A program made the translations under genes and the position numbers. A stretch of 41,887 nucleotides of DNA from a virus. The notes under the pieces were generated by a model. It saw only the letters and a program-made list of their open reading frames with translations, was not told the origin of the DNA and did not search any database. This document shows positions 1 to 41,887 of this stretch, one piece after another (the first letter of the stretch is position 1; each line of letters starts with the position of its first letter). The stretch is taken from IMG/VR virus record IMGVR_UViG_3300009151_000009, positions 1 to 41,887 of that record; one strand, written 5' to 3'.

Positions 1-123
1 CGCAATAAAAACTTTGAAAAGCTAAACGAAGCCCGCGCTGAGGTAGAGCGATTAAAAAAGCAATTAGGTGAACGCACCGAAATGGTGCACGCTGACGAAT
101 TAAGCACTCAGATGCTAAAGCTA
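1..123 (+). repeat. 123-base terminal repeat, identical to 41765-41887
   Basis: First copy of the exact end repeat. Removing one copy gives a closed molecule of 41,764 bp. Confidence 0.95.
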
Positions 124-453
124 ATTTCTGATATGAATGCAGCCAACGCACCACAGGTCCGCCCAGAACCATCGCGGCTAGAGATCGCGGCCATGATTTA
201 TGCTGGGATTGAACATATAGATGACGACGATGCGCTTAAAGCAGCAGACAAACTCATCGCAGCAGCAGCAAGGGGGGGCGAAATGAGATTTAATCTTAAA
301 GAACTACGCGAAGCAGCATTGCCGCTCATGGAGTGGCTTGCCGAAAATTGTCACCCTCATTGCACGATAATTGTAGATAGTGAGCACATTGAGTTAGTGG
401 AAGGGCTTGCGACTGTACGCAGGCAAAAGAAAGATAAGGAGGAGGACAAATGA
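1..453 (+). CDS. coiled-coil hypothetical protein (3' part of gene spanning the circle joint)
   Basis: The reading frame is open from base 1, so the gene enters from the other side of the circular joint. The full gene starts at ATG 41468, runs to 41764, continues at base 1 and stops at 453, giving 249 residues. ATG 82 is therefore probably internal. The protein has a long charged coiled coil in the middle, with a duplicated NEARAEVER-type segment (one copy at 41641-41680, the other at 26-65 = 41790-41829), and a mixed alpha region at the C-terminus. I recognise no family. It overlaps the next gene by ATGA, so it belongs to the same translationally coupled early operon. Confidence 0.7.
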   Translation, partial: RNKNFEKLNEARAEVERLKKQLGERTEMVHADELSTQMLKLISDMNAANAPQVRPEPSRLEIAAMIYAGIEHIDDDDALKAADKLIAAAARGGEMRFNLKELREAALPLMEWLAENCHPHCTIIVDSEHIELVEGLATVRRQKKDKEEDK

Positions 454-713
454 ACAAAGTCATAATATCAAAAAAAGAATTTATTAGTTTGGTAAATCGC
501 ATCACAAAATTAGAAGTAGCATTAATTCAGATAGCAACAGGCGATGGATGCAATAAGACCGCAATAAAAACAGCAGAAGAATCGCTGAAAATTAACGTGG
601 ACTCTTTGGTAATTGGATCAACTAACAAGAAATCCTTGCCGCCTGAAACGCGCATTAGTGTAAACGGGAAAACGTTTTTGCTTAAAGATATAGACAAGGA
701 AATGACAGTATGA
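450..713 (+). CDS. hypothetical protein, 87 aa
   Basis: Starts inside the stop of the preceding gene (ATGA), with a strong ribosome-binding site (AAGGAGGAGG, about 438-447). The first 40 residues look helical; the C-terminal half contains a short beta-like segment (TRISVNGKTFLLKDID). No motif is recognised. It lies between two early genes joined by overlaps, so co-translation is likely. It is one of the nine genes between the two halves of the split helicase. Confidence 0.65.
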   Translation: MNKVIISKKEFISLVNRITKLEVALIQIATGDGCNKTAIKTAEESLKINVDSLVIGSTNKKSLPPETRISVNGKTFLLKDIDKEMTV

Positions 714-1003
714 CCGACGAACAGATCAACGCGGCAGTTGCAAAAGCAAGTGGATGGAGCAAAGAGGAAGGCTTTTATGTGTGGCACAGCAATGGCATTG
801 ACCGTACTTGCTGGGAACTATGGGATTGGTGCAACGACCTTAATGCTATGCACGAGGCCGAGGCAACGCTAACCGAGGATCAACTATGTCGCATGGCTCG
901 AAATATCGAACGCAACGACGAACAGTGGTATTTTCGAGCAACAGCCCGCCAACGCGCAGAGGCGTTTCTGCGCACGCTGGGCAAGTGGGAGGAGGCAAAA
1001 TGA
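710..1003 (+). CDS. Phage ABA-sandwich domain protein, 97 aa
   Basis: The sequence begins MTDEQINAAVAKASGW and contains WDWCNDLNAMHEAEATLTEDQ and RATARQRAEAFLRTLGKW. From memory this is the pattern of the small phage 'ABA sandwich' family (Phage_ABA_S), whose members read INxAVAxAxGW...YCNDLNAMHEAE...ATARQRAEAxLRTxGxW. The family's function is unknown; it is frequent in early regions of uncultured tailed phages. It is coupled by ATGA on both sides: stop of the previous gene at 713, start of the helicase C-half at 1000. Confidence 0.7.
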   Translation: MTDEQINAAVAKASGWSKEEGFYVWHSNGIDRTCWELWDWCNDLNAMHEAEATLTEDQLCRMARNIERNDEQWYFRATARQRAEAFLRTLGKWEEAK

Positions 1004-1584
1004 ACAAGGGAATCTTAATTTGCTCGCTTGAAATGCCTGCCCCGCAGGTCATCGACAGGCTTGTAGCCCGCCTTGGGCGCGTATGTATGCGCAGCCTTGA
1101 GGAGGGTGTAAAGACCTCCCATGACATTAATGGAGTGATGATGGCTACCCAAGCCATCTCAAAAGCAAATGTAATAATCAGAGATGATTTGCACAATATT
1201 GCCTCTATTTCAGCCACAGCACGAGCCATGGCAAAGTCTGCAATCGGACTCGGAGTCCTGTTTGTGGATTACATCCAGCTTGTGCGCTGCGACCTCGGGA
1301 AGGACTTCTCACGGGAGCGTGAGGTGGCCGAGGTTAGCAGGACACTGCGTCTCCTTGCCATGGAGCTGAAGTGCCTAGTCATAGGCATCACTCAGCTCAA
1401 TGAGCAGGGCAAGGCCAGAGAAAGCCGTGCAATCGGCCAGGATGCAACGTGCGTCATGGTTGTAAAACACGACGAAGATGATCCGGAGGTCAGGACTGTG
1501 ACGATACCCATCCAGCGGTCAGGGCCATGCGGGGTGAAGACAGAGCTAAAATTCAACGGAAGAACTGCAACATTCTCACAATGA
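1000..1584 (+). CDS. DnaB-type replicative helicase, C-terminal half (split gene)
   Basis: A 194-residue protein equal to the second half of the DnaB RecA-like ATPase domain. In order it shows SLEM (residues 9-12, motif H1a with the catalytic Glu), Walker B FVDYIQLV (88-95), the REREVAEVSRTLRLLAMEL helix, sensor ITQLN (130-134), a RESR segment, and the terminal QRSGPCG (172-178) that corresponds to DnaB K-x-R-x-G-P-x-G. Walker A and the whole N-terminal domain are absent and lie in the gene at 38617-39381. The start is clear: GGGAGGAGG ends five bases before ATG 1000, and ATGA overlaps the previous stop. It presumably acts only with the other half, together forming the ring helicase at the phage fork. 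That assembly is inference. Confidence 0.88.
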   Translation: MNKGILICSLEMPAPQVIDRLVARLGRVCMRSLEEGVKTSHDINGVMMATQAISKANVIIRDDLHNIASISATARAMAKSAIGLGVLFVDYIQLVRCDLGKDFSREREVAEVSRTLRLLAMELKCLVIGITQLNEQGKARESRAIGQDATCVMVVKHDEDDPEVRTVTIPIQRSGPCGVKTELKFNGRTATFSQ

Positions 1585-4259: not shown

Positions 4260-5444
4260 ATGAGAATAGAAACACTAGCAGTGAATGCCGCAAATGCCTT
4301 GGAACGTTCGATTTGCTCCGCTCCAATAGAGCAGAGAATCAGCTTGAGAACACGTCTTGAGCGCGTCGTTGATCGCTTTGAGCTAATGCACACGGAGGAA
4401 AGGGGATACATGCCCTCGGACCAGGTTAGATGGTCTGATATTCTGGACAGATATTTAGCGGAGGAAGACGCTTACGAATGTGAACACTGTAGCGGCGTCA
4501 CTATAAGCCGCAACCTATCAGGCGTTTACGTTAGGAGATTGCGCGGAGGATCCCATCAAGACGAGTGGTGCGAAACGTGTCGCCAGAATGACTCTACAAT
4601 CTGCGTAAATTGCCATGTATGTTGGCGTGACAGCGATTTAGAGAGGGACGATACCGGAGAGGCCTATTGTGCCTCCTGCTTTCAGGAGCACGAGGAAGAA
4701 GAAGAAGACAATACAGAATCACTACCGTCTTACCACGCTGGATATCGTGCCCCGTTGCCTATTGATTACATGCGGCCATTATACAGCGCTGAGCTAGAGG
4801 CGGAGGCAGGCGACCGAGACGGTCTTGTTTGTGCTCTGAGGACGCTAGCTAGCCAACAGTCCCCACGCTGGCTTGGATGGGAGAGAGACGGCAGCCTCAA
4901 TGACAACACTGGCGTCGAACTGCTTGTATCTATGCTGCCGAGCCTGAATGCTCTCAAGAATGCTCTGCAAAGTCTTACGCCTATCGTGCGTAAATACGGT
5001 GGAACCTCTTGGGACAACGGCAGGTGCGGGCTGCACATAAATTCAAACTGTTTGCACTGGAGCAAAGTACGAAAGGCGCGATTGCTCTACCTAGTGCACA
5101 AGCTCCGCCCGCTATTGGAGGAGATCAGCGGCAGGAAAAACGCCCATTGGTGCCTATGGCCTGACGTGGCGATGGTTAGGCCTCGATACGACAGCCTGTG
5201 GACGCGCGGCGCTTTGTCCAGGTGGGGTCAAGGTGAGCTAGGAAAATATCTTTGTGTACGCATGGACAGCCAAAGAATTGAATGGCGTATGTTTAGGGGA
5301 ACCCTAAGAGCCTCTCGGATAGCGCTTTATTGCGCAACGGTGGCCTATTTAGAAGACGCCTCTGGCCGGACGGTTCACGACCGTCTGCCCGAAATAACTT
5401 GCGGCCTTAAATCCCTCGCTTCCTCCCTTGGGTTCTCAATTTAA
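4260..5444 (+). CDS. amidoligase (COOH-NH2 ligase) with N-terminal zinc-ribbon region
   Basis: A 394-residue protein. Residues about 72-145 carry several CxxC pairs (C74/C77, C104/C107 and more), a zinc-ribbon-like part ending in an EEEEED stretch. Residues about 170-385 match the amidoligase fold: YSAELEAE (175-182, the GVEiE position), ERDGSLND (D210) then GVELLVS, CGLHINSN (C256-H259) and EWRMFRGTLRASRIALYCAT (from E341), as in iExRxxxGTL. The family uses ATP to join a carboxylate to an amine and is related to glutamine synthetase and glutamate-cysteine ligase. The substrate is unknown. The glutamine amidotransferase downstream suggests that ammonia released from glutamine is used. There is no Shine-Dalgarno; the leader is A-rich. 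Confidence 0.82.
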   Translation: MRIETLAVNAANALERSICSAPIEQRISLRTRLERVVDRFELMHTEERGYMPSDQVRWSDILDRYLAEEDAYECEHCSGVTISRNLSGVYVRRLRGGSHQDEWCETCRQNDSTICVNCHVCWRDSDLERDDTGEAYCASCFQEHEEEEEDNTESLPSYHAGYRAPLPIDYMRPLYSAELEAEAGDRDGLVCALRTLASQQSPRWLGWERDGSLNDNTGVELLVSMLPSLNALKNALQSLTPIVRKYGGTSWDNGRCGLHINSNCLHWSKVRKARLLYLVHKLRPLLEEISGRKNAHWCLWPDVAMVRPRYDSLWTRGALSRWGQGELGKYLCVRMDSQRIEWRMFRGTLRASRIALYCATVAYLEDASGRTVHDRLPEITCGLKSLASSLGFSI

Positions 5445-5465
5445 CCTTAACAAACAAAACACATT

Positions 5466-6188
5466 ATGTGCCTATTAGTAGCAAGAAAACAAGGTTCAAA
5501 TTGGCTTCCATCTAAGGAAGAATTTGACAACGCATGGAGCAGCAACCCTCATGGGTTTGGGTTTGCTTATCACGATGATAAACAAGGGTTGATGCAATAT
5601 AAGACCTTAGAAAAAGAGTTGGCTTGGCAAGTGGTTCAGGAGCTTCCCACCGGCAGGCCCGCTATTCTCCACTGGAGACTAGCAACTCACGGCAGCAAAA
5701 CCGTTGCTAATTGTCACCCATTCGCATTTCGCCCCTCCGGTGGTGACCTTTGGATCGGTGCGCACAATGGCATCCTAGGTGCTCAACGGTGCGTAGGTGA
5801 CAAAACAGACAGTGAATCGTTCATGTTAGGATTAAAGCGCGTCCGGCTCCCTGAAATCGAGAAACAGATTTCACGCTTAGGTTATGGCAAAATGGCGTTT
5901 TTAAGCGCCAAGGGAGCCCTGCTGATTGCGAATGAAACGCAGGGCAAATGGCGCGTCACTGGCGAGGTTTGGGAATCCAACAACGGCATGGATGATTTAT
6001 GGCCGGTTTACGATGGCGGATGGCAACCTACTCGGCGTAGCTGGCGAGGCGAGACATGGGAGCGGCTCCGGTGCGGATGGTGCCATGAGACGGCCCGAGT
6101 TGAGTGGCTGGATCAGGATGGTGACCCTGTTTGTGCCTATTGTAAGGCGGATTCTGAGAACGAAATTGAATCGGAGGTGCTCAAATGA
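5466..6188 (+). CDS. class II glutamine amidotransferase (Ntn hydrolase) with C-terminal zinc ribbon
   Basis: Starts MC, giving an N-terminal nucleophile Cys2 once Met is removed. Further GATase II signatures are HWRLATHG (69-76), NCHPF (82-86), AHNGIL (99-104) and DSESF. This domain hydrolyses glutamine to glutamate and ammonia. Residues about 200-230 add CGWCHE and CAYCK, a zinc ribbon. The family usually feeds ammonia to a synthetase partner, and here the obvious partner is the amidoligase 21 bases upstream. Bases 6059-6079 of this gene are repeated exactly in the non-coding DNA at 6365-6385. Glutaminase-type role is well supported; the target is not. Confidence 0.85.
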   Translation: MCLLVARKQGSNWLPSKEEFDNAWSSNPHGFGFAYHDDKQGLMQYKTLEKELAWQVVQELPTGRPAILHWRLATHGSKTVANCHPFAFRPSGGDLWIGAHNGILGAQRCVGDKTDSESFMLGLKRVRLPEIEKQISRLGYGKMAFLSAKGALLIANETQGKWRVTGEVWESNNGMDDLWPVYDGGWQPTRRSWRGETWERLRCGWCHETARVEWLDQDGDPVCAYCKADSENEIESEVLK

Positions 6189-28906: not shown

Positions 28907-30244
28907 ATGGGATATTTATCTGAATTTCTTGATTCCGCAAAATATGGGGCCGCTCAATCTACGGCTGAAAATGCCAAGCGTGATCTTGAGAATATGGACA
29001 AGCTTCTGTCCAAGCGTGCAATTACAGAGCAAACTTACGAGGAAGAAGCTGCAAAAAAGAGAGCTATATATGACACAGCTTCCGAAAACGCATTGAAATA
29101 CGCTGAAAGTTTAAACACATCAAAGCTGCAACAAAGCGGCCTTCCGCAAGAAACAATTGATTCTTTAACGCGAGCACAAAAAACACAGCTTTCATACTTT
29201 CCGGAGCCTCCAAAAGTCGAGGCCACAGGCCGCCGCTGGGACATGTCTGGGCCTACACCAACGCTGATTGAAGCTCCCGCCGAGGTTGCTGCACAAGCTG
29301 CTCCTGAGCCTGTCTCAAGAGGCAGGCAGATGGTTCAAGAGCAGGAGTCTCGTCCAAAGACTCACAATGAAATTATGGCAGCACTCCCGACTGAAGGAGA
29401 CAGGGAAGAGTACAAGCGCGTCATCATTGAGAAAGACAAGGCAGCAAAGCTTAACAAGGCCATCCAGTACGTCATGCAGGCGTATCCTCCTGAAGAGCAG
29501 AAGAACGCTCTTGAGATGTACAAGGAACAGATCAATTTGCCATACGCTGGCATGGACATCAGGAGGATGGAAGAGCGTCCAATATTTAAGACTGCTGTTG
29601 AGACATTTGGTCAGAATTATCAAAAGAATCTGTCTGTTCTTGCAAGCCTTCGTGGTCAGCTTGAGCGGGCAAAGATGATTGCGGATCCAGGGGAAAAGAA
29701 GTTATTCCTCCAGACTGAAATTCCAAAGATGCTCAACACAATTGCTGTCTCTGCCCCTGATGCTGTTGGTGTTGAGGAAGGCAGGCGAATCATGGCGGAG
29801 CTTCAAAAGTACACATCTACCCCAATTTGGGAATGGGCATCACTTGCCCAAGACAGAGGATTCATATCTGCATTTACAGCAGATCCAGATGCTTTCTTAA
29901 ATAAAGTTGAAGCTCTTTACAAGGTTTCTGCAAAGATAAACAACGAAAAAACCAATGCTTATTACCAAAAGCTTGGCGGAAAGGGCCTACAGGATGCTGG
30001 AGGTTTCTTTTTGGATACAAATATCGGCAAAGGCAAAGATAGCCCTGCTGCCATTGAAGGCTTTAGAACTGGTGAAATTAAAACAACTCCAGCTCTCATT
30101 AAGAGATTTCCTGAAGATACTTCAATTTCAGCTCCTGCGCCAAATCAATCTATGTCAAGGCCGTTAAAGAATGGTACAGTCGCTCCAACTGGAGTAAGGT
30201 TATTTGGCCCAGCGCCAAATCCATTCTTGTTGTCAGGAGATTAA
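28907..30244 (+). CDS. internal virion / ejection protein, 445 aa
   Basis: Start follows TAA-TTT and has an upstream AGAAGG. Long helical stretches (AKRDLENMDKLLSKRAITEQ), a Pro/Ala hinge near 120-150 and a helical core 150-370; a flexible P/S/G tail. No catalytic motif recognised. The position between two other ejection-like proteins supports the virion role. Confidence 0.55.
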   Translation: MGYLSEFLDSAKYGAAQSTAENAKRDLENMDKLLSKRAITEQTYEEEAAKKRAIYDTASENALKYAESLNTSKLQQSGLPQETIDSLTRAQKTQLSYFPEPPKVEATGRRWDMSGPTPTLIEAPAEVAAQAAPEPVSRGRQMVQEQESRPKTHNEIMAALPTEGDREEYKRVIIEKDKAAKLNKAIQYVMQAYPPEEQKNALEMYKEQINLPYAGMDIRRMEERPIFKTAVETFGQNYQKNLSVLASLRGQLERAKMIADPGEKKLFLQTEIPKMLNTIAVSAPDAVGVEEGRRIMAELQKYTSTPIWEWASLAQDRGFISAFTADPDAFLNKVEALYKVSAKINNEKTNAYYQKLGGKGLQDAGGFFLDTNIGKGKDSPAAIEGFRTGEIKTTPALIKRFPEDTSISAPAPNQSMSRPLKNGTVAPTGVRLFGPAPNPFLLSGD

Positions 30245-30245
30245 A

Positions 30246-33200
30246 ATGCCCGAATACACAGATATTCCAATCGTAGAAGGCCCGACAAATCAGCAAACTG
30301 GCGAGTACAGTTTTGTTCTTCCAACGCGCTTCAATGATGACGAATCCAACGTAACTGTGGTGTTCCCGTCCTCAGTCTCAAAGGTTGATGCGCTGGCAGA
30401 GGTCAGGGAAAGCTTCCCGAGGAACTCTGCTGATACTCAGGTGCAGAAGATGACTGATCCTGAGTGGTACACCAAGATCAACAAGGATGACTACTTCCAA
30501 CTCAAAGCAGATGAGCACAAGTACCCAGGACAAGACGTAGGTCTTGGCACGATTGCTTACCATGCTGCAAAGGATGCCTTGGCTGGCATTGGCTACCTTG
30601 GCAAAGAGCTTGGCACTGCTGCTGTTCAGGCTGTTGTTCCTGGGGTTGGAGATCAGCGCATGGCTGCCAGACACGCTTGGAATGTCGTGGAAGGGTTCAT
30701 GCAGGGCAACGAGCGTCTATCCATGCTGGCTGGCCTTCTGGAGATGAAGATTGGTGACGTTGCCATGTCTCCATTGCGTGACTCTGAGTCCAATACGGAT
30801 GCAGACTTTCAGCGTTTTATCTACACTCAGGAGATGGGCAAGACTATGGCTGCTCGTACTCAGGGGCAGATGATTGCCGAAGGCGGCGGACAGTCTCCTG
30901 TGTTTGGAGATGCCAACTTCAAGCCACAGTTTGTTCCTAGTGCTACTGAGGCAGACGTTGCTGCTGCCAACTCGATTGGTAACGTGCTTGATGTTCTTGC
31001 TGTCACTCCTGTTGGTGGTGCGCTTGAGAAAGCAGGAGCCGCAGCAGGTGGCACGATGTTCAAATACGTCATGCCAACAGCCTTGGCTGACACTGCGATC
31101 AAGGCAGGTTTCACTGGCGCAAGAATAGCTGGCACAGCCCTTGATGAGGCTTCCAAGATGGCCTTCAACCAGATCACAAGGCTTACTGAAGCTGTAGGTG
31201 AAGGTGCAGTTACCGATGCCGGTAAGGCTGTAGCCAACTACACTGCTAAAGCAGCCATGTATGGCGGCCTGTTCACTGGCCCAGGAGGAACGTTGATTGG
31301 AGCGTCTCTTGCCGGTAAAGCGTTGCGATCCGTGGGTGAAGTTGGTGGCGCAGTTATGGCTGGCCTTGAGGAAGGTGGAGTGCGCGCTTCGCTTCAGGCT
31401 TTGTCTGAAAATGAGCTGAAAGCCTCCACGGTCAGGTGGGCAGCTAAGAAAGCACTTGCCATTGCTCCTCCAGATATTGCCTTCAACGCCATGAAAGGCA
31501 TTGTGGACTCCATGGCAACCACAGGAGCTACCATGGGGACGCTTAACGCGATGAGCGCTTGGGCATCAAACGATGACCCAGTGAAAGCATTTGCTGAAGG
31601 TATGGCAAGTGGAGCTGGCTTTGGCTTGTCCTTCGGAGCCATGCACGCTCCCTTTGGCATGACAGGCCAGGACAAGGTAAGGCTTGCCAACATGTTTGAT
31701 AACGACATTCGCGGCAGAGAGCTTACGAAGTCCTTCAGTGTCACCCAGCCCAGCGGCCACACTGAGACTGTTTCATTTAACGACCTTCAGGGGCGTATAG
31801 ATCTCTTTAATCGTGAAGACCTGTCTGCCCGTCAAAAGGCCATGATTCTTGCTATGACGCAGGGTCACGAGCGTGGCGGAGGAACATCAATCTTCGTTGA
31901 TGGCTCTCCAGAGAGCGCTGCCCTGATGGAGAAGATTGGCTTTGGTGGAACTAAGGGAGTCCATTACTTTGATGGCGCTGACGGCAAGAGCACGATCATT
32001 ATCGACCCCAAGTACATTGATCCTGCCACTGCTGCTGAAGAGGTCATGCACAGCTTGTTCACGGAAAACATTCGCAAGGAAGTTGTGCAGGGTGTACAGG
32101 CTGGACTCAAGTCTGAGAATCCTGTGCAGGCAGTAGATGAGATCAGCAAGTTTGGAATGCGCTACGCCGCAGAGATGGAGGCTGCCGGACATCCTGAGCG
32201 TGCCGCAGAGATGCGCGACAACATCACCCAGGCTCTTGATCCTGCTGTTCCAATGGAAACCAAGCTGAAGATGCTTGATGGTGTTATCAACGAGTATACC
32301 AGCAACTATGTTGGTGCTGCCGTACACGGCATGAAGCCTGACATCTTCCTAGAGGGCAACATCAGAAACATCTGGGACAAAGTTTGGGACAAAACCGTTT
32401 CCAACGTGCTGTCTACTTTTGACTTCACTAAAAACGGACTCACCAAAGATCCGATCAAGGGGCACTTCTTTGATGAGAAGGGCAAACGTGTCATCATGCC
32501 CGAGATGGAAGGCCTTGTAGGCCGCTTTGTGGATGCTGTGCGCGAGGGTCGTGGAGAGATCGCATCCAAGGATACTGTCGATGGTGCTCACTACGTTGAT
32601 GTCCGCACAAGTAAGCCGTACTCGTCTCCGGAAGATTTCGTGGACGGCAGGCCTACAACACTCAAGCAAAAGAAGGAGATCCTAAAGAGCATCTACGAGC
32701 AGAACATTGCTGCTGCATCTGCGATTGATCCTAGCCTGATCGTCATCGCTGATCCTGCTACTGTTGAGTCCGGAATGCTTGGCGGGAATGTCGCTGGACT
32801 CAAGAACAAGCAGGTGCTGTTTTCGAGAGGCCTTCCTGACTCATTCTTTACGCACTTGTCGGCTCAGGAGTCTGCTGGAAAGCGTGTGTACACATCTGAA
32901 CAGATCGAGGCTCTCAAAGGCCTAAATGAGGCCATGAAAGCCGGACACATCGTAATGAGCGATGCTTGGCATGACATTCGTCGTACAAAAGGCGACCGCA
33001 GTGAAGTTTACTACGGACGCACTAATCGCCCAGCATTGCCTGTCTCCTGGCAACAAACCGAAACTGGAGGGTTGCTTCTAAATCAAATTGATGTTGGTCG
33101 CGTCTGGAATCAGATGCGCTACTTCGCCAAGTATGAGCCGAAGCTGCGGGCAGAGCTTGCAAGTAAGGACATCCGCACGTTTTCTGATGTCATTCCGTAC

Positions 33201-36200
33201 ATTCAGCGGTACTTTGACAACTATTCTTCTGGCTCACCAAAGCCTGCTGCCAAACTCAAAGGCTTTAGTGAAGTGTTGCGTGATGGCATCAGCCGCGCTT
33301 TGGACATCAAAAACCGCAAGGCATTTGCGGCTGAAGACGCGGCTCGATTTGCTAACGAGCACACATTTGATTCTGAAGGCTTCCCATCGCAGCCGCAGCC
33401 GAAGGTTACAGTCAATGGCATCGAGCGTGAGGTGAACCGTGACCGCGTCAGTATGCAGGCCATACGTTCAGATCGTATTCTTGGCCTGAATGACTTCACG
33501 GTTGACGGCTTTAACGTGCCGATCAAGTACGACCCAGGACTTGCGATGAATCTGATTCGCGCCAACTTTGCTCCTGGCTCAACGACACGCGAGAAGATGC
33601 CCAACGGTGAAGTGCTCACTGACAAGGTGACAGGCAACCGGATCATCGTCAGCAAAACCGGCAAAGCATCGCTCTACGAGGGTGATCGCCGCAGCATCTA
33701 CGGAAGTGTGGACGAGGCTATTGCTGCCGCAGACAAGCGTTCTGTAGCTGCTACAAAGCAACGTGCATCATTCTCTCCAAGCTCAAGGGATGACATGCCG
33801 GAAGGCCCAGTGTACACAAGGGAGCAGGCATTGCAAAGAATCAATAGTGCGCCTGACTGGGACTTAGCATCAATGCTTAAAGATGAGCAGGGAAATGCAA
33901 AAAGAATTGAAAGAACTTACAATAGGTTCCTGATGCAAGATCCTTCTCAAAAAAGGGTAAAGGCGCTCGACGATGCCATTGAAACAATTTCAAGCAGTGT
34001 TGGTGTAAACATTGACAAATCCAAGTTTCCATTTTTTACGGAAAAAGGAGAAGTGCCTTATTTTTACAAAGAAAGAGGACAGCTCATAGGCAACGCTTAT
34101 CCAGAACTTGCTGATCTATTTGCCCTTGGAGACATGGAGGCACAGATAGAGTCAAAGAAGATGATGGGCATGTCTTGGGATGCTCTGCGGTGGAACGAAG
34201 CTCCTGGAGAAATCGCAGCCAAACATGGGCAGAAAATGTCAGATCTTACTGACAAGATTTACAATCAATTTAAAGGCTCCTTTTCTAAATCTGAAATATT
34301 AAATAAGGCATTAGAAGTTCACGATGCAATTTCAAATGTATACTCAAAAACATCGGATGATATAGGCACAAACAAGCTCAAGAACGAGTTTATTTCCCTG
34401 CGTGATGCAACTCGTTCCAGCTTTGCGCCCAGAAAAAAATCGGCTGAGGAGTATTCCAAGTTTGTGGAATCATTTCCTCAGACATCCAAAATGTCATCTA
34501 TCGAAAGGGATGTTGCGCTGCGGAATTGGATGAGGGAAAACTCACAAGCAACGTCATTTAACCTTAGAGGACTTGGTAAGAAAAACCTTCTCGATCTTGA
34601 AGAGGCAATTCGCAAAGCAAAGCCATCTACAGTAAACCAAACTGTTAAATCTAGTGAAGAGTTCAGGGCCAAGGTCAAGGCGCATGATAGCCTGATGGCC
34701 AAGATTCGTTCTGCTTACAAAAATGCTGGAGAGTTTCCTGCGCAAACAGAGGCCGCGCAAAACATTCCATATTATTCCTCTGGGTCTGGAGAAACATACA
34801 AGCAATTCAGGGATAGAGCTTTTGCTAAAGAAAAAGATGACCTGATGAAGGAAAGTAGTAAGGACAGAGAAGAGATGCTTGATATTATGGCATCAAAAGA
34901 CGCTTGGTCATCTGCAATCGAGCAGCGAGCGCTTTCTGGAGAACGTATTCCAGATGCAGTATTGGACAGCTACAGGAAGGAGATGGGAGCTGCCAATTTT
35001 GACAGAACCTTTAGAGGACAGGCCGAGCAAAAGGGGTACGTCCCATCTGATGTTATTGCGCGCTCAAATAAGGAAGCTGCTGATTTTCGTGCGGCGAAAG
35101 CGGAGATTAGAGGAGGGCGCAAGATTGCAGACACCATGGAGTCCCTGGCTCACAAGCCAGAGGCTAGCAACCAGTCTATTGCTCTTGCTGTAGACAAGGC
35201 CTACCAGGCTGGAGAGATTCCGCTGGAAACTCTTCACGCTACCAAGGCCAAACTAGCTGAGGCTGTTGACGAGGACTACGTTGCCAAGCGGTATGAGGCT
35301 ATGGATACCGCCAAAGGAGCGGAGCCTGCAATGACTCAGGAGGAGATCAATAAGCAGATTGAGGGTGAGTTGCGGGCTGCAGGAATGCGGGTTCCAAATT
35401 GGGGGCCAACGGAAGATGAAATATCGGCAGTTGATGCCAAGCGTCACGACACGGAAGTCATTCTGCGCGACAAGGAGCTGAAGCAGAATCGTGGCCTTAC
35501 CGAGAAGCAGAAGGCCATGTATGCCGAGCGAGCAGACAAGCAGATGGTTCGCATGGATGAGCAAACCAACCGGATGCTTAACAATGCCCGAGCTGAAGCC
35601 TTAGCTCAAGGCAAGCAGGCCATGCAACGCACCGAGCAGGAGCGTATTGTCTCTCGTCGTGAGTCGTTCATTGAGGCCTTCAAGACTCAGGCTGAGGCAA
35701 AGGCTGAAGCTAAGAAATATCTTGAAGAAGAAGCTTCCGCAGAACGCAAAAAGCTTGCAGCACAGCGTGAGTCTGACACAGCAGCCCGCCAAGAGTCCAA
35801 AAAGAAACAGGCGCAATCTATTGAGGAGCGTAAGCAGGGCTTCAAGGAGGCCTTGACTGAACGCGATACAGCAAAGGCAGAGGCCAAGAAATATTTTGCG
35901 GAAGAACGTGCTGCTGAACGCGCAAGGATTGCTCAAGAAAAAGAAGCCGCAGACAAACTTGCCGCAGAAAACAAGGCAAAGCGCAACGCTGCTCTTGAAG
36001 ACCGCAGGCTTGGGTTTGAAGAACTTCTAAAAGAGAAAGCCAAGTCTGAGCGCGAGTATCAACGTGACCTTAAGAAGAACCTTGATCGCTCAGAAAAAGC
36101 TCAGAAGTTCCATGCCGAGGAACGTGCAGCTCGTGCTGCGGAAAATGCCAAACTGGCCGAGAAGGAAGCTCTGCGTGTCAAGCTCCGCACCATTGAGAAC

Positions 36201-36449
36201 GAGAAGCATGTCAGAGCCATGGAGGAACTTCTCAAGGCACATGACACTGCGTCTCTTGGCGAAACAACAGCCAAAGGAACAGAAGTTGTAGACGCAAAGA
36301 TTCCGCACAACATCAGAATCATCATCACTCCAGCCCGCAGGTTCCGTGTGTATATGCCTACTGGATCACTAGTTGGAGTAAGTGACACTTACAAAGAAGC
36401 CCTCAAAACAGCACAACGCAATGCCCCTAAAAAAGTCTCCGTCCGATAA
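30246..36449 (+). CDS. giant internal virion protein, 2067 aa
   Basis: Start chosen at ATG 30246, with CAGGAG 8-13 bases upstream; it overlaps the previous stop by none. N-terminal beta part (residues 1-70), then an Ala/Gly-rich membrane-prone region (about 120-480), then a TAAEEVMHSLF segment (E598-E599-V-M-H602) at the position where zincin-like domains have HExxH, here with the first His replaced. C-terminal 1750-2000 is a long coiled coil with two clear EAKAEAKKYLEEE / TAKAEAKKYFAEE repeats, and the end is a small beta domain (IIITPARRFRVYMPTGSLVG). Likely ejected with the DNA; might carry enzymatic domains that I cannot identify. Confidence 0.7.
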   Translation: MPEYTDIPIVEGPTNQQTGEYSFVLPTRFNDDESNVTVVFPSSVSKVDALAEVRESFPRNSADTQVQKMTDPEWYTKINKDDYFQLKADEHKYPGQDVGLGTIAYHAAKDALAGIGYLGKELGTAAVQAVVPGVGDQRMAARHAWNVVEGFMQGNERLSMLAGLLEMKIGDVAMSPLRDSESNTDADFQRFIYTQEMGKTMAARTQGQMIAEGGGQSPVFGDANFKPQFVPSATEADVAAANSIGNVLDVLAVTPVGGALEKAGAAAGGTMFKYVMPTALADTAIKAGFTGARIAGTALDEASKMAFNQITRLTEAVGEGAVTDAGKAVANYTAKAAMYGGLFTGPGGTLIGASLAGKALRSVGEVGGAVMAGLEEGGVRASLQALSENELKASTVRWAAKKALAIAPPDIAFNAMKGIVDSMATTGATMGTLNAMSAWASNDDPVKAFAEGMASGAGFGLSFGAMHAPFGMTGQDKVRLANMFDNDIRGRELTKSFSVTQPSGHTETVSFNDLQGRIDLFNREDLSARQKAMILAMTQGHERGGGTSIFVDGSPESAALMEKIGFGGTKGVHYFDGADGKSTIIIDPKYIDPATAAEEVMHSLFTENIRKEVVQGVQAGLKSENPVQAVDEISKFGMRYAAEMEAAGHPERAAEMRDNITQALDPAVPMETKLKMLDGVINEYTSNYVGAAVHGMKPDIFLEGNIRNIWDKVWDKTVSNVLSTFDFTKNGLTKDPIKGHFFDEKGKRVIMPEMEGLVGRFVDAVREGRGEIASKDTVDGAHYVDVRTSKPYSSPEDFVDGRPTTLKQKKEILKSIYEQNIAAASAIDPSLIVIADPATVESGMLGGNVAGLKNKQVLFSRGLPDSFFTHLSAQESAGKRVYTSEQIEALKGLNEAMKAGHIVMSDAWHDIRRTKGDRSEVYYGRTNRPALPVSWQQTETGGLLLNQIDVGRVWNQMRYFAKYEPKLRAELASKDIRTFSDVIPYIQRYFDNYSSGSPKPAAKLKGFSEVLRDGISRALDIKNRKAFAAEDAARFANEHTFDSEGFPSQPQPKVTVNGIEREVNRDRVSMQAIRSDRILGLNDFTVDGFNVPIKYDPGLAMNLIRANFAPGSTTREKMPNGEVLTDKVTGNRIIVSKTGKASLYEGDRRSIYGSVDEAIAAADKRSVAATKQRASFSPSSRDDMPEGPVYTREQALQRINSAPDWDLASMLKDEQGNAKRIERTYNRFLMQDPSQKRVKALDDAIETISSSVGVNIDKSKFPFFTEKGEVPYFYKERGQLIGNAYPELADLFALGDMEAQIESKKMMGMSWDALRWNEAPGEIAAKHGQKMSDLTDKIYNQFKGSFSKSEILNKALEVHDAISNVYSKTSDDIGTNKLKNEFISLRDATRSSFAPRKKSAEEYSKFVESFPQTSKMSSIERDVALRNWMRENSQATSFNLRGLGKKNLLDLEEAIRKAKPSTVNQTVKSSEEFRAKVKAHDSLMAKIRSAYKNAGEFPAQTEAAQNIPYYSSGSGETYKQFRDRAFAKEKDDLMKESSKDREEMLDIMASKDAWSSAIEQRALSGERIPDAVLDSYRKEMGAANFDRTFRGQAEQKGYVPSDVIARSNKEAADFRAAKAEIRGGRKIADTMESLAHKPEASNQSIALAVDKAYQAGEIPLETLHATKAKLAEAVDEDYVAKRYEAMDTAKGAEPAMTQEEINKQIEGELRAAGMRVPNWGPTEDEISAVDAKRHDTEVILRDKELKQNRGLTEKQKAMYAERADKQMVRMDEQTNRMLNNARAEALAQGKQAMQRTEQERIVSRRESFIEAFKTQAEAKAEAKKYLEEEASAERKKLAAQRESDTAARQESKKKQAQSIEERKQGFKEALTERDTAKAEAKKYFAEERAAERARIAQEKEAADKLAAENKAKRNAALEDRRLGFEELLKEKAKSEREYQRDLKKNLDRSEKAQKFHAEERAARAAENAKLAEKEALRVKLRTIENEKHVRAMEELLKAHDTASLGETTAKGTEVVDAKIPHNIRIIITPARRFRVYMPTGSLVGVSDTYKEALKTAQRNAPKKVSVR

Positions 36450-37744: not shown

Positions 37745-38071
37745 ATGAGAAAACGAGTACCTAAATTTAAATATACAAGATCAGATGTTGAGAGTGTTGA
37801 GTTAATCAATAAACTCCCAAAGGCACATCGGCCTATTGTAGGAAGAATTGTTTGGTGGGATGGCTTTGGTCATCGCTTGGTAAGTAAAAGATCAACAGCA
37901 TTTGATCATTGGTTAGTCTATGCTCCGGAACCCGAGCATGTATGGCAAGAGGTTGTGCAATCCCTTGTAAAGATGGGATACCCTGAAGACATCGCCACCC
38001 GGAAGATGCGTCCCAAGCTTCAACAACCAAAGAATGCTGATTTACAGAAGGGAGCTGCCAATGCGAATTGA
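37745..38071 (+). CDS. hypothetical basic protein, 108 aa
   Basis: Starts MRKRVPKFKYTRSDVESVEL; a middle AFDHWLVYAPEPEHVWQEVV, then MGYPEDIATRKMRPKLQQPK. No family recognised. The 49-base gap upstream holds a GCGCG/CGCGC inverted repeat (37712-37731). Overlaps the replication gene by 11 bases. Confidence 0.55.
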   Translation: MRKRVPKFKYTRSDVESVELINKLPKAHRPIVGRIVWWDGFGHRLVSKRSTAFDHWLVYAPEPEHVWQEVVQSLVKMGYPEDIATRKMRPKLQQPKNADLQKGAANAN

Positions 38072-38672
38072 AGCGTCTTTGCTTATCGAGGGAGGCCCGA
38101 GCTTTAACGCAGCCATTTCCTGCGAGAAAAACATGCTGTTCGCTGTGGTCATACCGGAAGGTGTAGACATCCGTGTAGAAAGGGCAATAGCGCGCTCACA
38201 AACAGGGGATGAGGTTTTGCTTGATACTCGTCTTTCCAAGAATCCGACAATAGATAGAAAGGATGATGGGGATTGTGAGGGGGAGAAAGAGGGAGTAGGT
38301 AGGATAGGGGGTGTGGGGGAAAGGAAGGACGAGGGAGATGAGGGGGAGGAAAGGGGAAGAAACCTAGACCTATCCTCCATGCAATTTCCCTGCATCGACG
38401 GTACTGACTGGCAGTGCGATTCGGAAACAGTTGTTGGCCTGGTTATGGCCTACGGAGAGACTGCCGTGAGAGCTGCCTTTCCAAAAGCAAGGATGTGGCT
38501 GATAGCTAACCCTGAGCGCAGGAAGACCCAAAAGGGAATGCTTCGCTTCCTTAATAGATGGCTGGCAACCCCTTCAACGCCAGGCTACATGCACAACTCT
38601 AACTCACTTACAAGAAATGTCACAAGCACAGCAAAAATTGTCAAAGGCCGCCCAACGATTCAAGGGTGGTGA
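38061..38672 (+). CDS. replication initiator / helicase-loader-like protein
   Basis: Start at ATG 38061 (GGAG at 38051-38054). 203 residues. The last 60 residues contain NPERRKTQKGMLRFLNRWL, a motif of phage replication initiators and helicase loaders (W..NP.RRKT..G..RFL..WL) as I recall it. Residues about 65-100 are a low-complexity G/E/D/R stretch encoded by a purine-rich tract (38252-38362). It stands right before the DnaB N-half, the usual place for the protein that brings the helicase to the origin. Overlaps it by 56 bases. Confidence 0.65.
   Translation: MRIEASLLIEGGPSFNAAISCEKNMLFAVVIPEGVDIRVERAIARSQTGDEVLLDTRLSKNPTIDRKDDGDCEGEKEGVGRIGGVGERKDEGDEGEERGRNLDLSSMQFPCIDGTDWQCDSETVVGLVMAYGETAVRAAFPKARMWLIANPERRKTQKGMLRFLNRWLATPSTPGYMHNSNSLTRNVTSTAKIVKGRPTIQGW
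38252..38362 (+). other. G-rich polypurine tract inside the initiator gene (possible origin)
   Basis: About 110 bases almost without C and with few T on the + strand, with G-runs at 38268-38271, 38279-38283, 38291-38293, 38307-38311, 38315-38319, 38333-38335, 38342-38346 and 38353-38356. In lambda-type phages the origin lies inside the initiator gene, so the same may apply here. The tract could form G-quadruplex or triplex structures. Confidence 0.4.
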
Positions 38673-39381
38673 ACCCATGCTTCCAGCAACGGCAGCAGTG
38701 CCTACAGCTACGGAAGCAGAGCGCGGGGTTGCGAGTATAGCGCTTAACCATCCAGCACGATTTGTAGCGTTATGTGCTGATGAGATTTTTGATATTAACG
38801 ATATCTTTAATCCAACAGCAAAACGCATATGCCAAACTGTATTTGAGTTATCTGCTACAAACAGCACTTGCGACATTCGTGTTGTATTTGAAAAGTGCCG
38901 TGAGCATTTGCCTGATTTTCAGTTTCACGAATTGAGTGATATTTATACATTGTGTGGCGTATTTTCAGCGCTTCCAGAGTTTATAAAAATCGTATGTTCT
39001 ACTGCGCGGAGGCGGGCGCTTCAGCAGATGCTTACACAAGCGTCTCACGACATTGGGTCGGCAGACATTGATACGGCTGAGCTGGTAGCTGGAGTTGCTA
39101 TGCAAGCTGAAGAGATTGGCAGGAAAATGAGTCCGCCAAAGCAAATGGACACCAAGTCCATGCTGCTTGATGCCATTGGCCGCTATGAGCGCGGGCAGGA
39201 CAAATCAAATATTATCAAGACAGGATACCCAAATCTGGACAACATCACGCCAATCCGTGCAGGTGACTTCCTTGTCATCGGCGGAGAAACCAAAGCTGGC
39301 AAGACCATGCTGGCGCTCAACATCATCGCAAATCTAATTATTGAAAATGAACCTAGTAAATCTGACAGCACACACAATTAA
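38617..39381 (+). CDS. DnaB-type replicative helicase, N-terminal half (split gene)
   Basis: 254 residues. Residues about 30-125 are the DnaB N-terminal helical domain (EAERGVASIALNHPARFV, FNPTAKRICQTVFEL); 175-230 are the linker helix and start of the RecA fold, with TGYPNLDNITPIRAGDFLVI and Walker A GGETKAGKT (222-230). The protein stops 24 residues after Walker A, before the SLEM strand. All later motifs are absent here and present in 1000-1584. The start is either ATG 38617 or ATG 38677 (MLPATAAVP), both in frame. The last 11 residues are encoded within the overlap with the next gene. Confidence 0.86.
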   Translation: MSQAQQKLSKAAQRFKGGEPMLPATAAVPTATEAERGVASIALNHPARFVALCADEIFDINDIFNPTAKRICQTVFELSATNSTCDIRVVFEKCREHLPDFQFHELSDIYTLCGVFSALPEFIKIVCSTARRRALQQMLTQASHDIGSADIDTAELVAGVAMQAEEIGRKMSPPKQMDTKSMLLDAIGRYERGQDKSNIIKTGYPNLDNITPIRAGDFLVIGGETKAGKTMLALNIIANLIIENEPSKSDSTHN

Positions 39382-39658
39382 CGTACAGGGACTGCAGCCC
39401 ATTGAAACCAGTGGCTACATTGCTCGGGTGCATACCAACCTGCATCAAGACGGAGAGGTCAACGGAGTGCCTATCTTCGTGCGCTCTGGAGAGACTGTAG
39501 TCAACCTGCCGCAGCCAAAGGAAGGGGTCATGTTTATTGTTACCAGCTACGTCCGTGAGGCCTTGCCTGAGCGCAAGGATCTCCTGAGTCCCACTAAGTT
39601 TACTCGCGACAAGAGTGGCACAGTCATCGGTTGTGCAGCCTTCGAGATCAACAAATGA
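39347..39658 (+). CDS. conserved hypothetical protein, 103 aa
   Basis: ATG 39347 (MNLVNLTAHTINVQGLQPIE) lies within the end of the helicase N-half. The pattern NLTxHxINxxG...SGxxARV...VxNLPxPxxGxxxIVSxxVxxAxxxRxDLxxP...RDxxGxxxGCxxFxI is one that I recall as common in phages and actinobacteria. It is beta-rich and of unknown function. The next gene follows by ATGA. Confidence 0.68.
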   Translation: MNLVNLTAHTINVQGLQPIETSGYIARVHTNLHQDGEVNGVPIFVRSGETVVNLPQPKEGVMFIVTSYVREALPERKDLLSPTKFTRDKSGTVIGCAAFEINK

Positions 39659-40143
39659 AATACATCGACGTTGGCTTAATCGGGCTTGCTGGCTCTGGAA
39701 AAGACACTGCTGCTGCTGCTTTACTTGCCGTTGGCTGGCGCAGAATGGCGTTTGCTGACAGGCTTAAATCTTTGGCAATGGCATTTGGATGGGATGGGTA
39801 CAAAGACCCGAAGGGACGAAGGCTTTTGCAAGACCTGGGCATGGCAGCTAGAAACTACAATCAGGATTTTTGGATCACGAATGCAGAAGCGCACATAGAT
39901 AACATTTGTCAGCACCATTGCTGGAAAGTGCCCTATGTCTGGACGGATGTGCGTTTCCAAAATGAAGCAGACTTTGTGCGCAAGCGCAGGGGAATTATCA
40001 TCCGGATTAAGCGGCCAGAACAAATTTCTTCAGATCAGCATGAATCAGAGCTAAACCAGTTTGATGTTCGTGCCGATTATGAGGTGGTCAACGGAGGCAC
40101 CATTGAAGACCTCCATGCTAAAATACTAGAAATACTGAAATGA
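39655..40143 (+). CDS. deoxynucleoside monophosphate kinase
   Basis: 162 residues. P-loop GLAGSGKDT (10-18), then RMAFADRLKSLAMAFGW (the substrate side), RRLLQDLGMAARNYNQDFWI and VWTDVRFQNEADFVRKRRG. The pattern GxxGSGKDT...AFAxxLK...LLQxxG...R...W...DVRFxNEAxxI is that of T4 gp1-like dNMP kinases. It phosphorylates dNMPs to dNDPs and so feeds nucleotide pools from degraded DNA. Coupled by ATGA at both ends. Confidence 0.85.
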   Translation: MKYIDVGLIGLAGSGKDTAAAALLAVGWRRMAFADRLKSLAMAFGWDGYKDPKGRRLLQDLGMAARNYNQDFWITNAEAHIDNICQHHCWKVPYVWTDVRFQNEADFVRKRRGIIIRIKRPEQISSDQHESELNQFDVRADYEVVNGGTIEDLHAKILEILK

Positions 40144-40898
40144 GAACTGAAATCGTAAACAACTTATCCTTCGAGAATTACAGAGCATCTGAAGGCTTGA
40201 GCAAGCACGCGCTAGATACCTTTGCTGTGGCTCCAGCCATGTACCTGCACAAGCAAGCCAACCACACCTCGCCCTCACGAGCGATGGTGATGGGCACTCT
40301 CATCCATGCTGCGGCACTTGAAGGTGAAATCCTGTACGCTGCTGGCCCAAAGGTGGATAGGCGCACCAAGGCTGGAAAGGAAGAGTGGGAAAACTTCTGT
40401 ATTGAGAATGCCGGTAAAGAAATCGTCACCCAGGAAGAGGCCGAAATTATTGTAGGTGTACGGAAGGCTGTACAGCCGCTGCTTGAGAGACACTGCAAAG
40501 GCAGTAAGCTCGTGGAGCAGTCCATGTATTGGGAACGCGGCGGCGTGCAATGCAAAGGCAGGCCTGATCTCATCTGCACGATCAATGGTGAACCTGCGAT
40601 TGTGGATCTCAAGACTACTCAGGATATCACGTCCTTTGACAAAAAGTTCTACCACTTCAAGTACGACATTCAGGCTGCTTGGTATGCCCATGGAGCAGGC
40701 AAGGTTCTGGGAGTGTTCCCTGAGTTTTACTTCCTTGTCGTAGACACCGAGGCTCCCTATCTATCGCAGCTCATCCACACGAGTGACCGCGTGATGGAGC
40801 AGGCTGACATGCGCATTGATGACCTGCTCGTCAAATACGCCCAGTGCCAGGTCACTGGCAACTTCACAGAAGGCCTTCCTGAACTTCGCTCCATATGA
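40140..40898 (+). CDS. RecE/RecB-type PD-(D/E)XK exonuclease
   Basis: 252 residues. N-terminal YRASEGLSKHALDTFAVAPA, then MVMGTLIHAAALEGEI, and the active site GRPDLIC (D143) and VDLKTT (D156-L-K158), followed by a KYDIQAAWYAHG helix. This is the RecE-like (DUF3799) architecture: GxxxHxxxL...E...GRxDL...VDxKT...xQxxxY. It chews 5' ends to give 3' overhangs. No RecT-type annealase is seen; the OB protein at 36642 may serve as the partner. Confidence 0.85.
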   Translation: MRTEIVNNLSFENYRASEGLSKHALDTFAVAPAMYLHKQANHTSPSRAMVMGTLIHAAALEGEILYAAGPKVDRRTKAGKEEWENFCIENAGKEIVTQEEAEIIVGVRKAVQPLLERHCKGSKLVEQSMYWERGGVQCKGRPDLICTINGEPAIVDLKTTQDITSFDKKFYHFKYDIQAAWYAHGAGKVLGVFPEFYFLVVDTEAPYLSQLIHTSDRVMEQADMRIDDLLVKYAQCQVTGNFTEGLPELRSI

Positions 40899-41131
40899 GA
40901 CTGCATTGTGTTATCCGCCGCAGCACTGTGCTTAACGACAGCCTGAAGCTGCCCAGGCCGAAAATCGTTAACAAGGTTGTACTGATTGGGAGTAAGGAAG
41001 AGTGTGAGCAAAAATTAGATCAAGAATTCCTAAAGCCCGAGAACAGATCAACCGAAGACATACAGGTAGACCTAATGATGCAGATCTACAAAAACCAAAA
41101 AGACAATACATCCTACAGACCACACAAATGA
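40895..41131 (+). CDS. hypothetical basic protein, 78 aa
   Basis: ATGA start at 40895. Basic N-terminus (MRLHCVIRRSTVLNDSLKLP), a KVVLIGSKEECEQKLDQEFL helix and a polar end. No motif recognised. Linked to both neighbours by overlaps, between the exonuclease and a 49-residue gene. Confidence 0.55.
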   Translation: MRLHCVIRRSTVLNDSLKLPRPKIVNKVVLIGSKEECEQKLDQEFLKPENRSTEDIQVDLMMQIYKNQKDNTSYRPHK

Positions 41132-41277
41132 ACTGGATACGCACCTACCGCTGCACCGCTGATTACCGGCCATACCTGCACTGGCTCATCGAGGCCGAGT
41201 CGCCATGTGTGGCCAGACTGGCACTGGCGCAGATGCTGGGCATTCCGTACGAGCAGACGGAGGCGCAAGCAGAATGA
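41128..41277 (+). CDS. small hypothetical protein, 49 aa
   Basis: ATG 41128 in the stop of the previous gene (ATGA), ending at TGA 41277, where the next gene also begins. Contains YRPYLHWLIEAESPCVARLA and LAQMLGIPYEQTEAQ. Helical; no family known. The coupled ends support it. Confidence 0.55.
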   Translation: MNWIRTYRCTADYRPYLHWLIEAESPCVARLALAQMLGIPYEQTEAQAE

Positions 41278-41459
41278 CACACACAGTATCAGACGCCACC
41301 CTGCGGCAGATTCGCATAGCACTGGCAGCAATGCTATGCGCTGACGAGGAACACTGTCCGACACTGCGAGAGGCGCGGTTGCTTTGCGTGGAGGCGATGC
41401 GCTTAATAAACACAGAATTAAACACGAAAAACGCTGATGCGTTTAAACCAACAGAGTAA
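41274..41459 (+). CDS. small hypothetical protein, 61 aa
   Basis: ATG 41274 (MTHTVSDATLRQIRIALAAM) inside the previous stop. Two helices, with CADEEHCPTLREARLLCVEA between. Weak resemblance to the beginning of the next gene (ISALRILVNDIQ... AADRLEEL) suggests that the two could be related, but I cannot confirm it. Eight bases separate the two. Confidence 0.55.
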   Translation: MTHTVSDATLRQIRIALAAMLCADEEHCPTLREARLLCVEAMRLINTELNTKNADAFKPTE

Positions 41460-41467
41460 AATTGAAC

Positions 41468-41887
41468 ATGAATACACCAACGGACATAATAATATCGGCA
41501 CTGCGTATTTTGGTTAATGACATACAGTCGCCGGATGGCGTGCCTAATGCCTGTGTGGCTCAAGCCGCCGACAGGCTGGAGGAGTTGCAACAAAAATGCA
41601 ATATTCACTACGAGACGATCTGCGATCTTACCAAAGAACGCAACGAAGCCCGCGCTGAGGTGGAGCGTGTCAAAAAACAAATAGAGGACGAGACGGCTTA
41701 CTCTGTAACAATTCAGAGCCAAATGGAGAAAATAAAGCGGTCATTACGAGATTCAATTGAAACACGCAATAAAAACTTTGAAAAGCTAAACGAAGCCCGC
41801 GCTGAGGTAGAGCGATTAAAAAAGCAATTAGGTGAACGCACCGAAATGGTGCACGCTGACGAATTAAGCACTCAGATGCTAAAGCTA
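41468..41887 (+). CDS. coiled-coil hypothetical protein (5' part of gene spanning the joint)
   Basis: ATG 41468 (MNTPTDIIISALRILVNDIQ). The frame is open to the end of the window and continues at base 124 of the start, because 41765-41887 equals 1-123. The joined gene is 249 residues. Residues about 40-125 are a coiled coil with a 50-residue-spaced duplication (ERNEARAEVERVKKQ and KLNEARAEVERLKKQ). The first 45 residues resemble small helical phage proteins. Function unknown. Confidence 0.7.
   Translation, partial: MNTPTDIIISALRILVNDIQSPDGVPNACVAQAADRLEELQQKCNIHYETICDLTKERNEARAEVERVKKQIEDETAYSVTIQSQMEKIKRSLRDSIETRNKNFEKLNEARAEVERLKKQLGERTEMVHADELSTQMLKL
41765..41887 (+). repeat. 123-base terminal repeat, identical to 1-123
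   Basis: The last 123 bases equal the first 123 exactly, and the coding frame is continuous through them. This is the signature of an assembly of a circular or circularly permuted molecule; an exact short physical terminal repeat is the alternative. Confidence 0.95.

What the first reader, a model, noticed from the sequence alone, without database searches (positions are those of the whole stretch)
38617..39381. Replicative helicase split into two separate genes
Seen: the gene at 38617 has the DnaB N-terminal domain and Walker A (GGETKAGKT, residues 222-230) and stops 24 residues later. The missing SLEM, Walker B, sensor and C-terminal motifs are all in 1000-1584. Known: DnaB helicases are normally one chain with all motifs in one RecA domain. 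Inference: the two proteins assemble in trans into one hexameric motor, a split not within a linker but inside the RecA fold, between the Walker A helix and the next strand. On the circle nine genes (39347 to 1003) lie between, all co-oriented, and most are coupled by ATGA, so this is not a recent ragged insertion.
Basis: partly seen in the sequence, partly recalled or inferred. Interest (0 to 1): 0.9.

Follow-up and report, generated by a model that had tools for sequence, protein, structure and literature searches.

The report
Phage helicase split into two genes
A whole group of uncultured phages makes its ring-shaped DNA-unwinding motor from two separate proteins, cut inside the ATP-binding fold itself, which suggests that the motor only works when both pieces assemble.

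Summary
The window, a circular phage genome of 41,764 bp, encodes a DnaB-family helicase as two ORFs. The 254-aa N-half (38617-39381) has the N-terminal domain, linker helix, Walker A loop and first helix. The 194-aa C-half (1000-1584) has everything from SLEM to the arginine finger. Together they tile DnaB profiles without loss, for example TIGR00665 positions 3-223 plus 225-431.

I found 113 IMG/VR and GTDB contigs of the same phage group, the window included. Of these, 92 carry both halves, always separate (1.3-3.8 kb apart), always cut at the same place, and never fused. The window and 16 long relatives hold no other DnaB-type helicase. Catalytic residues are invariant and shared between the two chains; dN/dS is about 0.05 for both. 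The two halves co-evolve with each other more tightly than with the genes between them. No intein, intron or conserved flank can rejoin them. The split arose once, on a long branch.

Best reading: an obligate two-chain (6+6) DnaB motor whose ATP site is completed in trans. Assembly is inferred, because I could not model the complex. I found no published intein-free split of a replicative helicase.

The parts
38617..39381 (+). N-half of the DnaB-type helicase (254 aa): N-terminal helical domain, linker helix, first strand, Walker A, first helix; followed by a non-conserved tail
39280..39306 (+). Walker A / P-loop GGETKAGKT (residues 222-230); the checked G, K, G, K, T positions invariant in 121/121 rows
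39307..39345 (+). Last conserved stretch of the N-half, ..MLALNIIANLIIE; in relatives the chain ends within 0-30 residues of this point
1000..1584 (+). C-half of the DnaB-type helicase (194 aa): the rest of the RecA domain without the P-loop; starts M-x-x-G-[IV]-[LM] in the relatives inspected
1024..1035 (+). SLEM motif with the catalytic glutamate (E11), invariant 105/105
1255..1278 (+). Walker B strand VLFVDYIQ (D90 invariant 105/105)
1390..1401 (+). Sensor motif TQLN (Q132 invariant 105/105)
1513..1527 (+). QRSGP with the putative arginine finger R173 (invariant 105/105); the lysine that precedes it by two residues in DnaB is I, F or Y here
39347..39658 (+). Intervening gene 1 (103 aa, unknown function), overlaps the end of the N-half; its homologue directly follows the N-half in the relatives
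39655..40143 (+). Intervening gene 2: deoxynucleoside monophosphate kinase
40140..40898 (+). Intervening gene 3: exonuclease VIII / PDDEXK (DUF3799) nuclease
40895..41131 (+). Intervening gene 4 (78 aa, unknown); in many relatives its homologue ends about 15-20 nt before the C-half
41128..41887 (+). Intervening genes 5-7 (41128-41277, 41274-41459, 41468 running through the contig end to 453): variable small genes
1..1003 (+). End of intervening gene 7 (to 453) and genes 8-9 (450-713, 710-1003); the last overlaps the C-half start by ATGA
41765..41887 (.). Terminal repeat identical to 1-123 that closes the circle

Best explanation
It is the phage's replicative helicase of the DnaB family, encoded as two proteins. 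SHOWN by sequence: the N-half carries the N-terminal collar domain, the linker helix and the beta1-P-loop-alphaA segment of the RecA fold. The C-half carries the remaining RecA fold with the catalytic glutamate, Walker B, sensor and arginine finger. The split has one position, one origin, and is fixed in a diverse clade. INFERRED: the two chains bind non-covalently, the beta1-P-loop-alphaA segment completing the C-half's sheet, and the pairs form a DnaB-like hexamer (6 N-halves plus 6 C-halves). Each ATP site would take its P-loop from an N-half, its glutamate, Walker B and sensor from a C-half, and its arginine finger from the neighbouring C-half. The motor would then be inactive until both proteins are made.
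For: The halves are complementary with no lost positions: DnaB_C 2-48 plus 47-254 in the window, PHROG_19 149-381 plus 381-578, TIGR00665 3-223 plus 225-431. Joined at the cut, the spacing from the P-loop lysine to SLEM is 22 residues, as I count in E. coli DnaB. In 92 contigs both halves are present and separate, with 0 fusions. Sixteen long relatives each have exactly two complementary pieces and no other DnaB_C match. Catalytic residues are invariant in 121 N rows and 105 C rows. dN/dS is 0.052 (N) and 0.040 (C), like the neighbouring exonuclease at 0.047. N-C distance correlation is 0.87, against at most 0.61 for N with any gene in between; partial r 0.75 after removing the genome signal, Mantel p 0.0002; N-exo and N-g39347 controls near zero. 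AlphaFold gives the C-half pLDDT 81.7, matching DnaB in the PDB at E 3e-13. The N-half's N-terminal domain is confident and matches DnaB, but its P-loop segment is below 50 alone, consistent with a segment that needs its partner. The split rows form one side of a 100/100 branch.
Against: No complex was modelled or measured. The Lys two before the arginine finger in DnaB is I, F or Y in the split family, and the loop between QLN and RES is about nine residues shorter, so it is not a standard DnaB in every detail. The low confidence of the P-loop segment may partly reflect a shallow alignment (24 rows). Correlated rates can arise from shared pathway rather than contact.
Confidence: 0.85

Rival explanations
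1. The two chains are ligated into one polypeptide after translation (an unrecognised split intein or a ligase), so the working helicase is one chain.
For: Split inteins in the gp41 helicase (DnaB family) are known from ocean metagenomes, with trans-splicing (PMC10882715; Dassa et al. 2009 is cited there but not held).
Against: No room for intein halves: the N-half ends 0-30 residues after the conserved helix with unrelated tails, and the C-half starts 8 residues before SLEM with Met, with no Cys/Ser/Thr at +1.
Confidence: 0.05
2. The halves do separate jobs: the N-half acts on the host helicase or primase, and the C-half lacks ATPase activity and modulates host DnaB rings.
For: The phage lacks a recognisable primase or DNA polymerase, so it probably works with host proteins; the C-half is predicted to fold on its own.
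Against: Selection keeps a full P-loop on the N-half (121/121) and the glutamate, Walker B Asp, sensor Gln and Arg on the C-half (105/105), which only make sense in one ATP site; N and C co-evolve with each other specifically.
Confidence: 0.06
3. The halves are rejoined at the RNA level (trans-splicing) or at the DNA level (excision of the intervening genes).
For: A 9-bp word AAAATGAAC occurs at both junctions of the window.
Against: Joining at that word is out of frame, and the word is missing at the C-half of the near-identical L001. The flanks are coding sequence of other genes and not conserved; no Rfam intron in the window or six related loci; the intervening length varies 1.3-3.8 kb with no recombinase gene recognised.
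Confidence: 0.02
4. Artefact or decay: misassembly, or a broken helicase gene replaced by the host's DnaB.
For: The contig start lies between the halves; phage genes do get broken.
Against: 92 independent contigs with the same cut, an unbroken contig L001, dN/dS about 0.05, invariant motifs.
Confidence: 0.01

Closest known systems
DnaB replicative helicases (PF03796/PF00772; TIGR00665; phage PHROG_19; P1 Ban, G40P)
   Same: Domain order, motifs, predicted fold of both pieces and spacing across the cut
   Different: One chain in all of these. Here the chain is cut between the Walker A helix and the strand before SLEM; the Lys of the K-x-R finger is replaced and the loop before RES is about 9 residues shorter
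Phage C75C1 (OQ984151): the named phage with the best-matching portal and head proteins found here
   Same: Portal 28% and major head protein 25% identical; also an amidoligase, an exonuclease and a DnaB-like helicase
   Different: Its DnaB-like helicase is one 441-aa chain
Split-intein ('fractured') gp41 helicases of ocean phage metagenomes (gp41-1, gp41-8)
   Same: A DnaB-family phage helicase coded in two genes
   Different: Those halves carry split inteins and are spliced into one chain; here there is no intein sequence in either half
Split DNA polymerase of OM43 phages MEP401/MEP402 (PMC10580990)
   Same: A core replication enzyme in two ORFs, fixed in most group I members
   Different: A different enzyme, with one small ORF between the parts; its authors leave open whether that ORF is an intron

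Membership tests
DnaB-family replicative helicase | N-terminal helical domain joined to a RecA-type ATPase by a linker helix | tested here: met
   N-half: Foldseek match to DnaB and to isolated DnaB N-terminal domains (TMt 0.78-0.81); hmm match to DnaB 2r6a residues 10-230
DnaB-family replicative helicase | Walker A, catalytic Glu (SLEM), Walker B Asp, sensor Gln, arginine finger | tested here: met
   All present and invariant, but distributed over two proteins
DnaB-family replicative helicase | Whole ATPase domain on one polypeptide | tested here: not met
   92/92 contigs with both halves have them separate, 0 fused
DnaB-family replicative helicase | K-x-R pair contacting the neighbour's nucleotide | tested here: not met
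   R173 kept in 105/105; the Lys position is I, F or Y
DnaB-family replicative helicase | Hexameric ring with helicase activity | not testable with these tools
   Needs purified proteins or complex modelling
Split-intein (fractured) helicase | IntN after the N-half and IntC before the C-half, nucleophile at +1 | tested here: not met
   Tails of 0-30 unrelated residues; C-half begins M-x-x-G-[IV]-[LM]
Gene interrupted by a group I or II intron | Conserved ribozyme core between the exons | tested here: not met
   No Rfam match in the window or six related loci; nine protein genes in between

The most novel reading that the evidence does not exclude
The split is used for ring loading: N-halves form a collar and C-halves then close the RecA ring directly around single-stranded DNA, so that the phage needs no helicase loader and the motor is switched on only when the second gene of the early operon is expressed.
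Probability: 0.12. Interest if true: 0.92.

Novelty: new variant of a known kind. Interest (0 to 1): 0.75.

Why it matters
The RecA-type ATPase of a replicative helicase is among the most constrained folds in biology. A lineage in which the P-loop and the catalytic residues of one ATP site lie on two separately translated proteins, stably across widely sampled phages, would show that the fold can be a permanent two-chain assembly. It would give a ready-made system for testing how hexameric helicases assemble and load, and a natural split site for engineering switchable helicases. It also warns annotation pipelines, since the N-half alone misses Pfam's cut-off.

Tried and rejected
(1) A fused relative: none among 92 contigs with both halves, from three productive viral-contig scans and one genome-contig scan. 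A scan for P0001 alone found only L001, and a scan with an intact Verrucomicrobiota DnaB found nothing. (2) Excision or insertion by the 9-bp repeat AAAATGAAC: out of frame and not conserved at the C-half of L001. (3) Intron: no Rfam match. (4) Intein: no sequence to hold it. (5) A second helicase: none by DnaB_C search of the window and 16 relatives. PHROGs gave no primase or polymerase among the ORFs scanned, but several genes stay unassigned. (6) Structure of the complex: the tool takes single chains of natural sequences only. (7) Host: one relative sits on a contig binned with a Pedosphaera MAG, but three other genomes of that family have no copy; host unknown. (8) The gene upstream of the N-half (38034-38672) as a replication initiator: no family match, no similarity to the C75C1 initiator. 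(9) Literature: ten searches, no intein-free split of a replicative helicase found in the open-licence library. Subscription papers are not covered and Dassa 2009 is not held.

Full report
WHAT IS THERE. The window is a virus record whose ends repeat exactly over 123 bp, giving a circle of 41,764 bp. The ORF at 38617-39381 codes 254 aa with GGETKAGKT at residues 222-230 and a stop 24 residues on. The ORF at 1000-1584 codes 194 aa beginning MNKGILICSLEM and holding FVDYIQ, TQLN and QRSGP. Against DnaB profiles the two are exactly complementary: PHROG_19 149-381 and 381-578; TIGR00665 3-223 and 225-431 of 435; DnaB_C 2-48 and 47-254. In the PDB, the N profile matches DnaB 2r6a residues 10-230 and the C profile matches DnaB 9dls residues 251-459. 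The cut lies after the helix that follows the P-loop and before the strand that leads to SLEM. Joining INE to MNKGILVISLEM, as read in the relatives, restores 22 residues between the P-loop lysine and SLEM, which I count also in E. coli DnaB (from memory).

NOT AN ARTEFACT. L001, a separate 4.2-kb contig, contains the N-half (96% identical), the neighbours and the C-half (100%) in one piece. The genes just before its C-half are only 49-55% identical to the window's, so it is a different virus. Scans with the C-half and with alignments of both halves gave relatives at 64-73% identity (C) and 36-57% (N). Counting one locus per contig and the window itself, 113 contigs were analysed: 92 hold both halves and all are separate, 0 are fused, and N-end to C-start is 1,288-3,789 nt with median 2,041. 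Twelve hold only the N-half and nine only the C-half. Most of these contigs end close to the half they carry, and for one (L052) the missing half lies elsewhere on its contig. Sixteen long relatives (34-44 kb) searched whole have exactly two DnaB_C pieces each and no third. Every intact DnaB met in the scans is at most about 35% identical.

ONE OLD SPLIT. In the relatives inspected the N-half ends after ..LALNIIANLI(NE), with 0 to 30 further residues that are unrelated between lineages, and the C-half starts M-x-x-G-[IV]-[LM]. In a tree with 18 intact DnaBs the 15 split rows form one side of a 100/100 branch of length 3.2. The place where that branch joins the intact ones is unsure (the tool warns of long branches). 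The nearest named phage by head genes, C75C1, has an ordinary one-chain helicase of 441 aa. So the cut probably happened once in the stem of this group and was never undone.

IT IS KEPT BY SELECTION. dN/dS medians are 0.052 (N) and 0.040 (C), against 0.047 for the exonuclease between them. The Walker A positions tested are invariant in 121 rows; S9 L10 E11 M12, D90, Q93, Q132, R140, E141 and R173 are invariant in 105 rows (some rows are the same contig fetched twice). Pairwise distances of N and C correlate at 0.87 in 25 dereplicated genomes. N correlates with the intervening genes at only 0.57-0.61 and C at 0.69-0.71. The N-C margin held in all 2,000 random subsets. After removing the mean signal of three intervening genes the partial correlation is 0.75 (Mantel p 0.0002), with N-exo and N-g39347 controls near zero (full set). 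This is striking because the genes used as controls lie physically between the two halves. A shared functional pathway could contribute to it.

STRUCTURE. AlphaFold gives the C-half a mean pLDDT of 81.7 and it matches DnaB chains at E about 3e-13, TM about 0.8. The N-half folds well over residues 30-170, matching DnaB N-terminal domains, and has a linker helix at 179-192. Residues 193-254 with the P-loop stay mostly below 50. That is consistent with a segment that needs the C-half as partner, though the alignment is shallow. A complex could not be modelled.

HOW IT MOST LIKELY WORKS. N and C bind each other as one RecA fold and the pairs form a DnaB ring. The ATP site would use the N-half's P-loop, the C-half's glutamate, Walker B and sensor, and the neighbour's arginine finger. 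This is inference from the DnaB family; what is shown is the distribution, conservation and co-evolution of the parts. The C-half's start is coupled by ATGA to the gene before it, and most genes of the cluster are linked in the same way, so both would be made from one early operon.

ALTERNATIVES. Protein splicing lacks any intein sequence; RNA splicing lacks an intron and conserved flanks; DNA excision lacks conserved repeats, and the only shared 9-bp word joins out of frame. Separate functions are unlikely given the shared active site. Decay is excluded by selection.

KNOWN OR NEW. Split phage genes are known, such as the split DNA polymerase of MEP401 phages (PMC10580990) and split-intein gp41 helicases (PMC10882715). 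I found no report of a replicative helicase permanently divided inside the ATPase fold without an intein, within a library that lacks most subscription papers. I therefore call it a new variant of a known kind. Open questions: the host, the stoichiometry, and why the split is useful.

Noticed in passing
window 1513-1527 and 1390-1425: Across the split family the Lys of the DnaB K-x-R finger is replaced by I, F or Y, and the loop between QLN and RES is about nine residues shorter than in DnaB.
   Followed up: partly
window 40895-41131 and 39347-39658: Two small unknown genes between the halves are conserved in position in the relatives: one right after the N-half, the other often right before the C-half. 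They could be helicase partners; the first has distant relatives in Paenibacillus and archaeal viruses.
   Followed up: partly
window 38034-38672: The gene just before the N-half, overlapping it by 56 nt, is conserved across the group and has no family match; its conserved part is the C-terminal third. Possible replication initiator or helicase partner.
   Followed up: partly
window 4260-6188: Amidoligase-like gene next to a class-II glutamine amidotransferase-like gene; PMC10580990 discusses this pair in phiEco32 and OM43 phages as a possible cell-wall modifier.
   Followed up: no
window 30204-36449: 2,081-aa protein with no PHROG or Pfam match; phage C75C1 also has a giant unknown protein.
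   Followed up: no
window 1-123, 41642-41684 and 41765-41887: Repeat units in a coiled-coil-like gene (41468 through 453) sit at the contig ends; the gene and the 710-1003 gene occur in variable copies in relatives.
   Followed up: no
L083 (JAFMIZ010000069.1): A relative with both halves on a contig binned into a Pedosphaera (Verrucomicrobiota) MAG; the same bin has an ordinary intact DnaB.
   Followed up: partly
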